Part shown: piece after piece, positions 12,568 through 31,827 of the stretch
How the letters are laid out: each line of letters starts with the position of its first letter
How positions within the stretch are numbered: the stretch's first letter is position 1
Origin: Firmicutes bacterium HGW-Firmicutes-1
GTDB lineage: Bacteria; Bacillota; Clostridia; Lachnospirales; Vallitaleaceae
Direction: 5' to 3'
Assembly: GCA_002841625.1 (NCBI GenBank)
Contig: PHAG01000004.1
Location: 1 to 64,000 of the forward strand
DNA: 64,000 nt
Program-made: the position numbers and the translations under genes
Notes under the pieces: generated by a model
Database searches by the model: none
What the model was told of the DNA's origin: nothing
The model's input: only the letters and a program-made list of their open reading frames with translations

Positions 12568-12596
12568 TTGACAGCATTTATAAGTCGAGTTATAAT
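12568..12596 (+). promoter_or_regulatory. Sigma-A promoter of amt-glnK
   Basis: TTGACA, 17 bases, TATAAT: a consensus match with ideal spacing. Transcription would begin near 12603, leaving a leader of about 120 bases. The rest of the 12394-12567 gap shows nothing else. Confidence 0.85.
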
Positions 12597-12602
12597 AACC
12601 TT

Positions 12603-12690
12603 GAATTCAATGACGAATTCTTATATCATATCGTAAAACAAGACAAAGAGGTCTGTACATCACCTAGCGTGAAGTGCGGTCTTTTTTATT
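12603..12690 (+). promoter_or_regulatory. Probable ANTAR-type antiterminator and overlapping terminator in the amt leader
   Basis: Hairpin P1: GAATTC (12603-12608), six-base loop AATGAC, GAATTC (12615-12620). Hairpin P2: AGAC (12641-12644), six-base loop AAAGAG, GTCT (12651-12654). Both loops have A at position 1 and G at position 4, the signature of ANTAR-protein target RNAs. P2 overlaps the left arm of a terminator hairpin (12645-12687: core GTACaTCAC, loop CTAGC, GTGAaGTGC, then a T run), so the two folds exclude each other. Such RNAs control nitrogen genes in clostridia, where binding by a phosphorylated ANTAR regulator permits read-through. The ANTAR protein itself is not in this window. 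Confidence 0.72.
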
Positions 12691-12725
12691 TTTGTTTATA
12701 ATTATTTTTAGGAGGAAATTATACT

Positions 12726-13946
12726 ATGGATACGTTTATCATCAATTCTATGTGGGTATTAATTGCAAGTATTCTTGTATTTCTTATGCATGCAGGCTTT
12801 GCTATGGTTGAGGTAGGGTTTACCCAATCTAAGAACGCCGTTAATATCATCATGAAAAATTTCATTACAGTATCAATCGGTGTTCTTTGCTATTTCTTTA
12901 TTGGATATGCTTTCATGTATGGAAAAGACTTCGGAGGTATTATTGGAACTGATACTTTCATGCTTATGAATAAACCAGTAGAAATCGCCGGAATTTCTTT
13001 TGACATCTTTTTCTTTTTTCAAGCCATTTTTGCTGCTACCTGCGCTACTATTGTATCTGGTGCTATGGCTGAGCGAACTAAGTTCGGTGCTTACATCATT
13101 TTTTGTTTTGCTGCTACTCTCGTAATTTATCCATTAATCGGACATTGGATATGGGGCGGTGGATTCTTGGCTACGAAAATAGGCTTTTTAGATTTTGCTG
13201 GAGGAACTGCAGTTCATGCAGTTGGAGGCTTTTGCGCATTGGTTGGTGCATATATGGTAGGCCCTAGAAATGGTAAATATAAAAAGGGTGTTGCTCAAGC
13301 AATCCCCGGACACAACATTCCCCTAGGCGCTTTAGGTGTTTTGATTTTATGGTTTGGTTGGTTTGGTTTTAATCCAGGCAGTACTTTAGATATTACGTCT
13401 CCTGCAACAGCACATGCAGCAATAACTACCCTTCTTAGTGGTGCAGCGGCAACCTTTGCAACACTTGTCGCTAGTAATATCAAATATGGCAAGCCTGACG
13501 CTGCTTTAACTTTGAATGGAGCTCTTGCAGGCTTAGTTGGAATTACTGCCGGCGCCAATGTCATTACCTTTATCGGGGCGCTGATAGTCGGAACAATCAG
13601 TGGTGTTATTATGATGTTTGCTGTAGAATTTATTGATCAAAAGCTTAGAATCGATGATCCTGTTGGTGCCATTTCAGTACATGGTGTTTGTGGTGTCTTC
13701 GGAACGATTGCTATAGGCTTATTTGGTTCAACAGAGAGTGCTCGTGGCCTCTTTTATGGTGGTGGTTTCTCATTACTAGGAAGCCAAGCAATTGGTGTTC
13801 TCATTGCTGGTGCTACCGCAACAACATTAGCATTCATCACCTTCAAAGTTTTAAAGTCAACATGCGGCTTAAGAGTTGAAGAACATGAAGAATTACATGG
13901 ATTAGATGCTATGGAGCATGGTATTTCTGCATACATTAATTTATAA
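12726..13946 (+). CDS. amt: Ammonium transporter
   Basis: 406 residues with about 11 membrane segments, the Amt/MEP/Rh plan. The pore signature is present: AGFAMVEVGFTQSKNA near the N-terminus, FAGGTAVHAVGGF around residue 155-170 with the first pore His, and SVHGVCGVFG near 318 with the second pore His. It moves ammonium into the cell at low external nitrogen. GlnK follows 62 bases downstream and would block the channel when nitrogen is plentiful. Expression appears to be set by the antiterminator leader. The start has TAGGAGG 8 bases upstream. Confidence 0.95.
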   Translation: MDTFIINSMWVLIASILVFLMHAGFAMVEVGFTQSKNAVNIIMKNFITVSIGVLCYFFIGYAFMYGKDFGGIIGTDTFMLMNKPVEIAGISFDIFFFFQAIFAATCATIVSGAMAERTKFGAYIIFCFAATLVIYPLIGHWIWGGGFLATKIGFLDFAGGTAVHAVGGFCALVGAYMVGPRNGKYKKGVAQAIPGHNIPLGALGVLILWFGWFGFNPGSTLDITSPATAHAAITTLLSGAAATFATLVASNIKYGKPDAALTLNGALAGLVGITAGANVITFIGALIVGTISGVIMMFAVEFIDQKLRIDDPVGAISVHGVCGVFGTIAIGLFGSTESARGLFYGGGFSLLGSQAIGVLIAGATATTLAFITFKVLKSTCGLRVEEHEELHGLDAMEHGISAYINL

Positions 13947-14008: not shown

Positions 14009-14359
14009 ATGGCTGATAAAATGACTAAAATTGATATCATTACACGTCCTTCTAAGTTTGAAGCATTAAAAGAAGCACTCAATGATATTGGAATTACTGG
14101 CATGACAGTTACTCAAGTTCTTGGTTGTGGTATGCAAAAAGGTGTCACCGAAATGTATCGTGGTGTTCCAGTATCTATTAATTTATTGCCCAAAATAAAA
14201 GTGGAAATGGTGGTTTGTGAAGTTCCAGTTCAAACTGTTATTGATACGGCAACCGAGGTACTAAGAACAGGCGAAATTGGTGATGGAAAGATTTTTATTT
14301 ATCCCGTCGAAAATGTTATTAAAATTAGAACTGGCGAAGAAGGCGTACGTGCCTTGTAG
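14009..14359 (+). CDS. glnK: PII nitrogen regulatory protein
   Basis: 116 residues, PII family. It contains KFEALKEALNDIGITGMTV, the pre-T-loop sequence GCGMQKGVTEMYRG, and the ATP/2-oxoglutarate site near RTGEIGDGKIFIYPVE. In the T-loop the uridylylated Tyr of enteric PII (position 51) is not present: the segment reads GVPVSINLLPK. Covalent uridylylation is therefore unlikely, and control would be by ADP/ATP and 2-oxoglutarate binding, as in many Firmicutes. Linkage to amt makes it the GlnK type that gates the transporter. The ribosome site is GGGGGG. Confidence 0.93.
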   Translation: MADKMTKIDIITRPSKFEALKEALNDIGITGMTVTQVLGCGMQKGVTEMYRGVPVSINLLPKIKVEMVVCEVPVQTVIDTATEVLRTGEIGDGKIFIYPVENVIKIRTGEEGVRAL

Positions 14360-14382: not shown

Positions 14383-14407
14383 AACAGCCATCCATAGGAT
14401 GGCTGTT
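14383..14407 (+). terminator. Terminator of amt-glnK
   Basis: Perfect 11-bp stem AACAGCCATCC / GGATGGCTGTT with loop ATA, followed by ACTTTAATTATTT. Confidence 0.85.
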
Positions 14408-14424: not shown

Positions 14425-14778
14425 TTACTGCTTACATTTACAGGAATGACAACTATCACAAGAAGGTGCATCTGTAGTTAAGGAACCGTTTAAATAATTT
14501 TTAATTACATCCTCTATCTCCCCTTCTACTTCTGGGAAGACTAGAATCTTCAAAGCCTCTATTTTTTCCAATGCCCCACTGCCCATACTACCAGCAATTA
14601 TCACATCTGCACCTTGATCTTTTAGATATTGTGCTAATTCACCATGTAAATGTTCTCTGGTGTCTACCTCTACTTTATTTATTAATTCTCCTTCGACGAT
14701 TTCACAAAGAGTAAATACCTCACATTTTCCAAAATGTTTAGAAACTTGTTGTCCATCTGTTGCAATTGCTAATTTCAT
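14425..14778 (-). CDS. NifX/NifB-family dinitrogenase cofactor-binding domain protein
   Basis: 117 residues, mostly one domain of the NifX / NifB C-terminal type (MKLAIATDGQQVSKHFGKCE, then ADVIIAGSMGSGALEKI). The fold carries iron-molybdenum cofactor precursors in nitrogen fixers, but most stand-alone clostridial members are of unknown role, and no nif genes lie here. The last 15 residues are Cys-rich (CDSCHSCKCK), which suggests metal binding. It overlaps the end of nth by 4 bases, so it is co-translated with that iron-sulfur enzyme. A role in iron-sulfur or metal handling is an inference. Confidence 0.85.
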   Translation of the reverse strand: MKLAIATDGQQVSKHFGKCEVFTLCEIVEGELINKVEVDTREHLHGELAQYLKDQGADVIIAGSMGSGALEKIEALKILVFPEVEGEIEDVIKNYLNGSLTTDAPSCDSCHSCKCKQ

Positions 14779-27305: not shown

Positions 27306-29480
27306 TTAATACTTTCCAAATTCCTTATCACTTAAAGATATTTTCTTAGAATTTGTTGTTACGGCTACTTCATTATATTCATCCTGATTACCATGATTAT
27401 AATTTTTACTATTCATGCTTTCTAGCATTTTGATAACTTCTGGATTAAGTGATTCTAATCCTTTATAAGAACCGTTACCATTCAATTTCTTTAATTTAAA
27501 TTTTTCTACTTGTTTTTTAAGCATTTCTGCTTGGCCTGAAAGTTCTTCACTTGCTGCTGCTGTTTCTTCAGAGGTCGCTGAGGTCGTCTGCACAACTTCG
27601 GATATTTGCGTAAGCCCTTGATTTACTTGATCAACTCCTAAGGCTTGCTCATTAGATGCTACAGCAATTTGATTCACTAAATTTGCAACCTTAGATATAC
27701 CTTCAACAATGTTTGTTAATGCATTCGCTGTTTGATTTGCAATTTTAGTTCCATCTTCAACCTTTTTAATAGAGCCCTCTATCATCACCGTTGTTTCCTT
27801 CGCAGCGTTAGCAGAACGAGCCGCTAAATTTCTTACCTCCTCTGCAACTACTGCAAAGCCTTTTCCATGTTGTCCAGCTCTTGCTGCTTCTACTGCTGCA
27901 TTAAGGGCAAGTATATTTGTTTGAAAGGCTATTTCATCTATAACCTTAATAATCTTCGAAATATTACTTGAAGATTCATTGATTTCATCCATTGCCTTTA
28001 ACATCTTCTTCATTTGCTCGTTGCCTTCTGATGCGTTTGTTTTGGCTGTTTCAGAAATATCATTCGCTTGATTCGCATTTCCCGCATTTTGTCTTGTTTG
28101 TGAAGCAATTTCTTCCACGGAAGCTGTTAATTCTTCTATGGAGCTTGCTTGCTCTGTTGCGCCTTGAGAGAGAGACATACTAGATACTGATACTTGTCTT
28201 GAGCCAGATGCAACTTGTTCAGAAGCACTATTGATATCTGAGAGCACCTGAGAAAGCGATTCTATTGTTTCATTTAAGGCATTTTTTATATCGGCATGAT
28301 CGCCTTTATAATCACCAGTTACGCTTACTTGGAGATTTCCATTGGACATTTCCTTCAAGACAGCTGCCGCTTCCTGAACAGGTTTTATGATTGCATCTAA
28401 TGTCTGATTTACGCCCTCTATAATATTCTTATATCCACCTTTAAATTTATCTGAATCTCCTCTTGTATTAAGCTTTCCAGCGATGGCTGCTTGAGATAAT
28501 ATATTCGTCTCATCAATCAAAGCTTTTATCGCGTCAATGGTCATCTTTAGCGCTGGAGAGATTTCATCTTTATCATCTTTTTGTACCACTACTGCACTCA
28601 TATCTCCATCTGAGATTTGCTTCATTGTAGCAATGACAATGTTTTGAAGATCATCGGCAAAACCATCCATAGCAATTGCCATTTGTCCAATTTCATCCTT
28701 CGTGTCTATATTCAATCGCAACCCCAAGTGCCCCATGCTCATTTCCTTCATCATGAGAACCGCCTTGTTGATAGGCCTTTTAATGATTGTACTTATAAAT
28801 AATCCCAATAAAATAGAAATAACAATTGCTGCTACAATAACGACTATTAGTATTATATTTGCACGTTCACTAGCTACATTGGCTTCTATTTCTGATTGAT
28901 GAGCTATTTCAATGTTTATATCAACAATTTCGTTCAATACTGCCTCTGCAGCTAGAAACGTTGTTCTCGCATTTAGTGATGCCTGATATTCTTTACCATC
29001 AAGCTCCTTGATTTCTGGACTTTCTAATGTTAATCCGCTTTTCAGAAGCTTATCCTTTTCTTTAGCAAACTCTATAACTATATTATGATCTGACACCCAC
29101 TTATCCCATTTGGGTACAAATTCTTCCCACTTAACTTCTTCTTCTGCAGACATTGGCAGTGGCAAATAAGTTTTCCTTGCCTCATCTGCTCTTATAAATG
29201 CACTTTCAATATATGCATACTGCGCTTTTCTTATATCCTCATTCATCATTTTATTGTTTGTAAGACCTCTTTCACCTACAAGTACAGCAGTTTGCGCTTC
29301 ACTCATAATCAAAAGGCTCTGTATACTTGGCAACCTGACTATAGCAATTTCTTCCTCTGCTTTTTTAATCTCTGACATTCCGCTATATCCTACAATGCCA
29401 ACAATCCCTGCAATCATTGCAACTATGATAAATCCACTAATGAGTTTAGCTCCTACCTTCAAGTTATAATACCATTTCAT
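27306..29480 (-). CDS. Methyl-accepting chemotaxis protein (4HB type, several HAMP units)
   Basis: 724 residues. Membrane helix at 10-30, extracellular four-helix-bundle sensor at about 35-190 ([18 protein letters not shown]), membrane helix at about 205-228, then HAMP and two further HAMP-like units (about 230-410; [37 protein letters not shown]). The cytoplasmic signalling hairpin contains [21 protein letters not shown]. The C-terminal tail ends in [13 protein letters not shown], identical to that of the second receptor. The signal sensed is unknown. It is larger than the other receptor because of the extra HAMP segment. Confidence 0.93.
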
Positions 29481-29502
29481 ATTTGTTCCTCCCTAAAATT
29501 GG

Positions 29503-29997
29503 TTATCGGATTTCATGAAGCATTTCAGCATCTTCTTCATTTAATAGTTTCTCACAGTCTAAGATTAACGTTACATCTTTGCCTGTTTTGCCAATACCCT
29601 TAATATACTTCTTACCACCCTTATTGATATCTGGTGGTGAAACAATTTCATCATCGGGAATAGAGATTACTTCTGATACACAGTCAATAATCAATCCAAT
29701 AGATATTTCTTGTATATCTATAACGATGATACATGTTCGATCATTATATTCGATAGAAGGCTTCTTAAATCTTAATCTTATATCCATTACTGGGATTATC
29801 TTTCCTCGTAAATTAATAATTCCTTTTATATACTCAGGAAGCTCTGGCACCTCAGTTATGGGCTGAATACCAACTATTTCAGTAACATACATAATACCAA
29901 TTCCATAGAACTCTTTGCCTAATGAAAAGGTAAGAAACTTACCCTTCTGAGTATCTTCTTCCTCTTCAGATAAATTCTGCACGACAGTCTCCCTCAT
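29503..29997 (-). CDS. cheW: CheW coupling protein 1
   Basis: 164 residues, CheW fold (FLTFSLGKEFYGIGIMYVTEI; IKGIINLRGKIIPVMDIRLRF). It links receptors to CheA. The start follows AAAGGAG. About 75% of the residues are shared with the other CheW at 31828-32325. It lies 22 bases upstream of the first receptor gene. Confidence 0.94.
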   Translation of the reverse strand: MRETVVQNLSEEEEDTQKGKFLTFSLGKEFYGIGIMYVTEIVGIQPITEVPELPEYIKGIINLRGKIIPVMDIRLRFKKPSIEYNDRTCIIVIDIQEISIGLIIDCVSEVISIPDDEIVSPPDINKGGKKYIKGIGKTGKDVTLILDCEKLLNEEDAEMLHEIR

Positions 29998-30042
29998 TTT
30001 TTCAGCTCCTTTAAAGTCTCTTTTTTATTTTACTCCTAGACT

Positions 30043-31809
30043 CTAATACTTACCAAATTCCTTGTCACTTAAAGATATTTTCTTTGGATTTGATGTTGCG
30101 GCTACTTCATCATGTACTTCATTATTTTTATAACTTTGGTTTTTTCCATTCATGCTTTCTAACATTTTGATAACTTCCGGATTAAGCGTTTCTAACCCTT
30201 TATATGTACTATTTACATTTTGTTTTTTTAAACTAAATTTTGAAACTTGATTCTTAAGCATTTCAGCTTGACCTGATAACTCTTCACTCGCTGCAGCTGT
30301 TTCCTCAGAGGTTGCCGAGGTTGTTTGAACAACTTCTGATATTTGAGTTAGCCCTTGATTCACCTGATCAACCCCTAGCGCCTGCTCATTCGAAGCTACT
30401 GCGATTTGGCTTACTAAGGTTGCAACCTTAGTAACACCTTCAACAATGTTATTTAATGCATCTGCCGTTTGATTAGCAATTTTAGTTCCATCTTGAACCT
30501 TTTTAATAGACCCTTCTATCATAGCTGTCGTTTCCTTAGCCGCATTAGCAGAACGAGCTGCTAGATTTCTTACTTCCTCTGCAACAACTGCAAAGCCTTT
30601 ACCATGTTGCCCCGCTCTTGCGGCTTCAACAGCTGCATTAAGTGCAAGTATATTTGTTTGGAAGGCTATTTCATCAATAACCTTGATTATTTTAGAAATG
30701 TTACTTGAAGATTCATTAATCTCATCCATTGCTTTTAGCATTAAGTTCATTTGTTCATTACCATCTGTAGCATTGGTTTTAGCTGTTTCAGAAATATCAT
30801 TAGCTAAATTAGCGTTTTGTGCATTTTGTCTTGTTTGTGAAGCAATTTCTTCTATAGAAGCAGTTAATTCCTCAATGGAACTTGCTTGCTCCGTAGCCCC
30901 TTGGGATAGGGACATACTCGATACTGACACTTGTCTTGATCCCGAAGCTACTTGCTCTGAAGCAGCACTTATATTGGACATTACCTCGTTAATGTTATCT
31001 GTCATTTTAATAAATGCACTACCAAGAACACCTACTTCATCTTTGGAATCAATCACTAAGTTGATGTCTAAATCACCATCTGCCATACGTTTTGCAGCAT
31101 CAACCATTTTGTTGATTGGTTTTTTAATGATTCTCGTAATAAATAAACCTAATAACATCGAAATGATAACACCTGCTAATGAAATACCAATTAATAATGC
31201 TGTTACCCTTTTTATGGCTTCCTCTGCATCCATACTAGCTTGACGAGCTAGCTCTCCATTTATATCATTGACTATGAGTAACGACGTTTCTGCAGGTTTA
31301 AATGCTTCTGCAGAAATCCTATTACTTTCTCTAATATTCTGAAATAGCACTTCTTGATTAGCAGACTTGTTTACAACAGCCTCATCATATTTTCTAGCTA
31401 TCGCCAAAACATTGTTTACTGTTGTTAACCACTCATTCCATAGCGGTACAAATTTGTTCCATTCTTCAGCCTCTTCACTACTTTGTGGTAATGGTTCATA
31501 GACTGCCCAATATTCTTCACTCCTTTTTATAGCATCCTCAATATATTGATATTCTACTTTTCTCTGCTCTGATGTCGTTTCAACATTTCCTAAATTCCTT
31601 AATCCAGCTCTTACCGCAGTTTGTGCTTCGCTCATTATTAGCAATGCATTGATACTAGGTAGTCTTACTTCCGCAACCTCATTCAAGTGCCTGTCAACAG
31701 TATTTATTCCACTATAACCAACAACTCCAATACTTCCTGCTATTAAAGCTACAATCAAAAATCCTAATATCAACTTAACACCAATTTTCATATTTAAGAA
31801 CCATTTCAT
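30043..31809 (-). CDS. Methyl-accepting chemotaxis protein (4HB type, one HAMP)
   Basis: 588 residues. Membrane helix at about 10-30, 4HB sensor at about 35-190 ([18 protein letters not shown]), second membrane helix at about 195-215, one HAMP domain ([18 protein letters not shown]) and a signalling domain almost identical to that of the first receptor ([20 protein letters not shown]). The tail again ends [13 protein letters not shown]. The start at 31809 has AGGAGGG 6 bases upstream. The sensor halves of the two receptors differ clearly, while the signalling halves do not. Confidence 0.93.
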
Positions 31810-31827
31810 ATACAACCCTCCTCATGA

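What the first reader, a model, noticed from the sequence alone, without database searches (positions are those of the whole stretch)
12603..12690. ANTAR-type antiterminator controls amt-glnK
The leader after a consensus promoter holds two hairpins with six-base loops, AATGAC (stem GAATTC) and AAAGAG (stem AGAC/GTCT). Each has A at loop position 1 and G at position 4. The second overlaps the left arm of an intrinsic terminator just before amt. This is the known layout of ANTAR target RNAs, here predicted on the ammonium uptake operon. The cognate ANTAR regulator is not in the window.
Basis: partly seen in the sequence, partly recalled or inferred. Interest (0 to 1): 0.72.

Follow-up and report, generated by a model that had tools for sequence, protein, structure and literature searches.

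The report
RNA switch on ammonium-uptake operon
In front of this clostridial bacterium's ammonium-uptake genes lies an RNA on/off switch of a known type (an ANTAR-protein antiterminator target); its likely partner protein is the only such protein in the genome and is encoded beside glutamine synthetase.

Summary
A perfect promoter (TTGACA-17-TATAAT) is followed by hairpin P1 (12603-12620, loop AATGAC), a 20-nt linker, hairpin P2 (12641-12654, loop AAAGAG) and an intrinsic terminator (about 12645-12687) that contains P2's loop and 3' arm, before amt-glnK. Dinucleotide shuffles of the window give 0.007 such arrangements per 64 kb. The genome has exactly one ANTAR protein, encoded between glnA and a type III-like glutamine synthetase gene: a NitR-like antiterminator. 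Leaders of amt-glnK, glnK-amt and glnN in relatives carry the same hexaloops, with covarying stems, invariant G4 in both loops and A1 in P2. One relative that lost amt keeps the leader with G4 mutated. I correct three points: (1) the regulator's receiver lacks the acidic pair in all 40 glnA-linked relatives, so phosphorylation is unlikely to be its switch; (2) linkers here (20 nt; 3-40 in relatives) exceed what EutV tolerates; (3) P1 loop position 1 may be G. ANTAR targets upstream of ammonium transporters were predicted in 2012, so this is a new member of a known kind. A side observation may be new: many amt leaders outside this family have only one hexaloop. Nothing was tested experimentally.

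The parts
12568..12596 (+). sigma-70 type promoter TTGACA-N17-TATAAT, perfect consensus
   Evidence: the same 12/12 promoter precedes P1 in most family orthologues
12603..12620 (+). P1 hairpin, stem GAATTC/GAATTC, hexaloop AATGAC; begins at the expected transcription start
   Evidence: conserved and covarying in relatives
12621..12640 (+). 20-nt linker between P1 and P2
   Evidence: 15 nt in the nearest relative, 3-40 nt across relatives
12641..12654 (+). P2 antiterminator hairpin, stem AGAC/GTCT, hexaloop AAAGAG
   Evidence: loop AANG and closing C-G invariant in 24 leaders
12645..12687 (+). intrinsic terminator hairpin and U-tract; its left arm contains the loop and 3' arm of P2
   Evidence: terminator alone -15.8 kcal/mol
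12726..13946 (+). amt, ammonium transporter (controlled gene)
   Evidence: TIGR00836, E 1.5e-127
14009..14359 (+). glnK, P-II signalling protein (second gene of the operon)
   Evidence: P-II models E 2e-35

Best explanation
It is an ANTAR-type transcription attenuator on the amt-glnK operon. A strong promoter starts RNA at about 12603 (inferred). Without regulator the nascent leader folds into the terminator and transcription stops at about 12687. When the single ANTAR protein of the genome (NitR-like, between glnA and glnN) is active, a dimer binds the P1 and P2 hexaloops and holds P2. This blocks the terminator's left arm and lets polymerase read into amt-glnK. By analogy with Clostridium saccharobutylicum NitR, the active state should come with nitrogen limitation. 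The protein probably senses this through its degenerate receiver by binding a partner or metabolite, not by phosphorylation. Shown here: the RNA anatomy, its conservation, a single ANTAR gene and the receiver residues. Inferred: binding, direction of control and signal.
For: Exact anatomy and rarity. One ANTAR gene in the genome, REC plus ANTAR, flanked by glnA and a GSIII-like gene; the glnA link was seen in 40 ANTAR loci across the order. Aligned leaders show 97% standard pairs, with covariation above all 500 shuffles. In a curated set of 24 leaders (amt-glnK, glnK-amt, glnN) every stem pair is standard, G4 is 24/24 in both loops, A1 24/24 in P2, and A2, not selected for, is 24/24 in both loops. 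The model finds a second target in this genome before glnK-amt (E 3e-6; it was in the seed), and a P2-plus-terminator also precedes glnN. In 22 family genomes, all 17 with amt have an ANTAR gene and all 4 without an ANTAR gene lack amt. G018, which lost amt, keeps a leader with P2 loop AATAAA (G4 lost) and a broken U-tract. EutV RNA-contact residues K149, E160 and M172 are kept. Mechanism and NitR precedent: PMC3369931, PMC8934654, PMC6316151.
Against: The 20-nt linker is longer than EutV tolerates (5-12 natural; 14 nt strongly impaired). P2 has only 4 bp. The EutV G4-stacking Tyr164 is His here, and Arg142, Arg175 and Arg177 are not kept. Loops were collected partly by searching for A1/G4, so those two frequencies are biased upward, and the covariation partly reflects lineages. 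The glnA leader of this genome lacks a recognisable target. No expression or binding data.
Confidence: 0.93

Rival explanations
1. The leader is an attenuator sensed by something else: a riboswitch, T-box or small RNA, or leader translation, with the hexaloops incidental.
For: A promoter-leader-terminator layout is shared by all these mechanisms.
Against: No Rfam family matches the leader even at E<=1. There is little room for an aptamer: P1 starts at the expected +1 and the leader is about 85 nt to the terminator end. What is conserved is exactly the ANTAR loop signature.
Confidence: 0.04
2. A plain constitutive leader terminator with no regulator; the hairpins are chance.
For: Single short hairpins of this kind are weak (P1 -3.8, P2 -2.2 kcal/mol).
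Against: Chance rate 0.007 per 64 kb; conservation and covariation in relatives; enrichment specific to amt/glnN leaders.
Confidence: 0.02
3. The target is bound by a different protein than the glnA-linked ANTAR, for example one missed in gaps of the assembly.
For: The assembly is in 33 contigs, about 99% complete. Some relatives have a second, EutV-like ANTAR.
Against: Only one ANTAR match here and in several other amt-bearing family genomes; the same hexaloops precede glnN, adjacent to this ANTAR gene.
Confidence: 0.04

Closest known systems
EutV/EutW-controlled eut leaders of Enterococcus faecalis (dual-hexaloop ANTAR targets; PMC3369931, PMC8934654)
   Same: Two hexaloop hairpins with A1/G4, the second overlapping an intrinsic terminator; REC-ANTAR protein.
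   Different: Operon is amt-glnK; linker 20 nt instead of 5-12; the candidate regulator has a degenerate receiver and His in place of Tyr164; some relatives have G at P1 loop position 1.
NitR of Clostridium saccharobutylicum (ANTAR antiterminator of GS/GOGAT genes; cited in PMC6316151)
   Same: ANTAR protein acting in nitrogen assimilation; from my own knowledge also encoded next to glnA.
   Different: Here targets are seen on two ammonium-transporter operons and on glnN; no direct sequence comparison with that NitR was made.
Predicted ANTAR targets upstream of ammonium transporters and P-II genes (Ramesh et al. 2012, PMC3369931)
   Same: Same RNA motif, same gene class.
   Different: That prediction lists gene classes; whether this lineage is in its tables could not be checked (supplements not available).
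AmiR of Pseudomonas aeruginosa (pseudo-receiver ANTAR)
   Same: Receiver lacks phosphorylation residues; control by a partner is likely.
   Different: No AmiC-like partner was identified here; different operon.

Membership tests
ANTAR dual-hexaloop antiterminator target | Two hairpins with six-base loops, A at 1 and G at 4 | tested here: met
ANTAR dual-hexaloop antiterminator target | Second hairpin overlaps the left arm of an intrinsic terminator and is mutually exclusive with it | tested here: met
ANTAR dual-hexaloop antiterminator target | Variable linker between the hairpins (the covariance search of PMC3369931 allows a variable linker; 5-12 nt in eut leaders) | tested here: inconclusive
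   20 nt here, 3-40 nt in relatives: outside the EutV range, but that range was measured for one protein and is not a fixed definition of the class
ANTAR dual-hexaloop antiterminator target | Conserved in related genomes with covarying stems | tested here: met
ANTAR dual-hexaloop antiterminator target | ANTAR protein encoded in the genome | tested here: met
ANTAR dual-hexaloop antiterminator target | Binding and antitermination by the ANTAR protein | not testable with these tools
   needs in vitro or in vivo work
NitR-like (glnA-linked) ANTAR regulators | ANTAR protein encoded directly beside glnA | tested here: met
NitR-like (glnA-linked) ANTAR regulators | Induces nitrogen-assimilation genes under nitrogen limitation | not testable with these tools
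   expression data needed; reported for C. saccharobutylicum (PMC6316151)
Phosphorylation-controlled response regulators (EutV type) | Acidic pair, phospho-Asp, Thr/Ser and Lys in the receiver | tested here: not met
   acidic pair is Ser-Ser here and absent in all 40 glnA-linked relatives; Asp, Ser and Lys are present in this protein

The most novel reading that the evidence does not exclude
The glnA-linked pseudo-receiver ANTAR proteins form a distinct branch with relaxed RNA rules. P2 with loop AANGNN is the conserved core. P1 is lineage-specific, may start with G and may sit up to 40 nt away. In other families of the same order a single hexaloop at the transcript start (7-12 nt after the -10 box) is enough, against the two-hairpin rule derived from EutV.
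Probability: 0.45. Interest if true: 0.6.

Novelty: new member of a known kind. Interest (0 to 1): 0.42.

Why it matters
It assigns a regulator, a target motif and a small regulon (amt-glnK, glnK-amt and probably glnN) to nitrogen control in a clostridial lineage where the switch was not described. It also gives a test bed for two open points: how a receiver without its acidic pair senses nitrogen status, and whether both hexaloops are always needed.

Tried and rejected
Rfam search of the window and leader: no match to the leader. Strict dual-hexaloop scan of amt leaders from 80 named, mostly distant genomes: only this genus was found, since distant leaders fail the criteria. A first chance estimate was discarded because its terminator rule missed the real site; one search replaces it. 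Weak model hits in this genome (C25, C6, C12, C10) lie inside or at the start of coding regions (several hits here and in relatives sit at flagellin-type gene starts) and were rejected as chance. A wider alignment with glnN leaders (A2) misaligned P1, so stems were counted anchored on the loops instead. A target upstream of glnA in this genome was looked for and not found. Dual hexaloops are rare before amt in two other families of the order (2 of 48); single hexaloops are common there.

Full report
Observation. The leader reads exactly as described: promoter TTGACA (12568-12573), 17 nt, TATAAT (12591-12596), then P1 at 12603-12620, a 20-nt linker, P2 at 12641-12654, and a terminator whose U-tract ends at 12687, 39 nt before the amt start. 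The neighbouring gene on the left is divergent, so the terminator lies inside the amt transcript. The minimum-energy fold of 12603-12697 is P1 plus the terminator (-27.1 kcal/mol). The P1+P2 fold is 10.7 kcal/mol weaker, and the RNA ending at 12660 folds as P1 plus a P2-type hairpin. This is the geometry of an attenuator that needs a protein to hold P2. The window has no other such arrangement, and shuffles give 0.007 per 64 kb.

Regulator. A whole-genome search finds one ANTAR domain. It belongs to a 192-residue protein with a receiver and an ANTAR domain, encoded between glnA (TIGR00653) and a second glutamine synthetase gene that looks like the large type III enzyme (type judged by size and weak family matches). 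The glnA link was seen in 40 of the ANTAR loci examined across the order, and the order glnA-ANTAR-glnN in all 11 loci of the family that were read in full. Clostridium saccharobutylicum has an ANTAR antiterminator, NitR, that induces GS/GOGAT genes in nitrogen limitation (PMC6316151); that it too sits beside glnA is from my own knowledge. In all 40 glnA-linked proteins the two acidic residues that bind Mg2+ in true receivers are absent (Ser-Ser here); the EutV-like proteins found in the same order keep them. The Asp is kept in the family but lost in many other lineages. Activation by phosphorylation is therefore unlikely; AmiR is a known ANTAR protein with a pseudo-receiver (PMC3369936). Of the EutV contacts to RNA, K149, E160 and M172 are kept by the alignment; Tyr164 is His in the glnA-linked group.

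Comparative evidence. Leaders of amt-glnK and glnK-amt operons in the family were read in both orientations. Fourteen aligned leaders give 97.4% standard pairs and a covariation score above every one of 500 shuffles and every slid control. In 24 curated leaders, including five of glnN, no pair is non-standard, the P2 loop is always AANGNN, and the P1 loop has G4 always, A2 always, and A1 in 18 and G1 in 6. The EutV structure paper finds that A1 makes no specific protein contact while G4 does, so G1 is plausible. A1/G4 were partly search criteria; A2 was not. The covariance model ranks this site first in the genome and a second glnK-amt leader next; both were in the seed. glnN in this genome has a clear P2 (AGAAC-AATGGG-GTTCT) over a terminator, with no certain P1.

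Presence and loss. Among 22 family genomes, all 17 with amt have an ANTAR gene, and all four without an ANTAR gene lack amt; the four are not independent (three are one genus). G018 has the ANTAR gene but no amt; its old amt leader survives before an unrelated gene with P2 loop AATAAA and an interrupted U-tract. This is what loss of selection on the switch would look like.

Differences from the textbook case. EutV leaders have linkers of 5-12 nt, and 3 or 14 nt were strongly impaired; adding 20 nt abolished activity in vitro. Here the linker is 20 nt, and 4 to 40 nt in amt-glnK orthologues; some of the long ones can fold into a hairpin of their own (read from the sequences), but the window's linker has no obvious one. 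Outside the family, 27 of 48 amt loci have an AANG hexaloop over a terminator before amt (32 of 57 terminators, against 4 of 92 in the rest of the same loci and 1 of 90 in other ANTAR loci). In several it starts 7-12 nt after a near-perfect promoter, leaving no room for P1.

Judgement. The finding is real and its interpretation is very likely right. ANTAR targets upstream of ammonium transporters and P-II genes were already predicted in 2012 (PMC3369931), so the element is a new member of a known kind. The single-hexaloop leaders and the pseudo-receiver branch are the parts a specialist may find new. Binding, direction of control and the signal remain inferred.

Noticed in passing
L222, L243, L240, L252, L235, L218 (also L242, L244, L245 by eye), upstream of amt: In other families of the order, amt leaders carry one AANG hexaloop hairpin over the terminator, 7-12 nt after the promoter, with no space for P1; some have two such attenuators in tandem (L252, L240).
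   Followed up: partly
L170-L179, L164 and L002 (glnN leaders); L172-L175, L180, L181, L186 (upstream of glnA): glnN, and in some relatives glnA, have the same P2-type hexaloop over a terminator, suggesting one regulon with amt.
   Followed up: partly
L002:3715-4293 (-) and 39 glnA-linked relatives: The ANTAR protein's receiver lacks the acidic pair and has His where EutV has the G4-stacking Tyr164.
   Followed up: yes
L154:1501-1569: A relic of an amt-type leader in a genome (G018) that lost amt: P2 loop AATAAA, broken U-tract, now before an unrelated gene.
   Followed up: yes
L005, L006, L087, L101, L170, L178: P1 loops with G instead of A at position 1 (GAAGAC, GATGAC, GACGGT, GAAGAA).
   Followed up: partly
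L088, L089, L090, L093: Long P1-P2 linkers (34-40 nt) appear able to fold into an extra hairpin that would bring P1 and P2 together.
   Followed up: no
window 27306-31815: Two very similar chemoreceptor genes within a chemotaxis gene cluster, a possible recent duplication.
   Followed up: no
window 14383-14407: An 11-bp inverted repeat between glnK and the convergent gene 14425-14778, possibly a shared two-way terminator.
   Followed up: no
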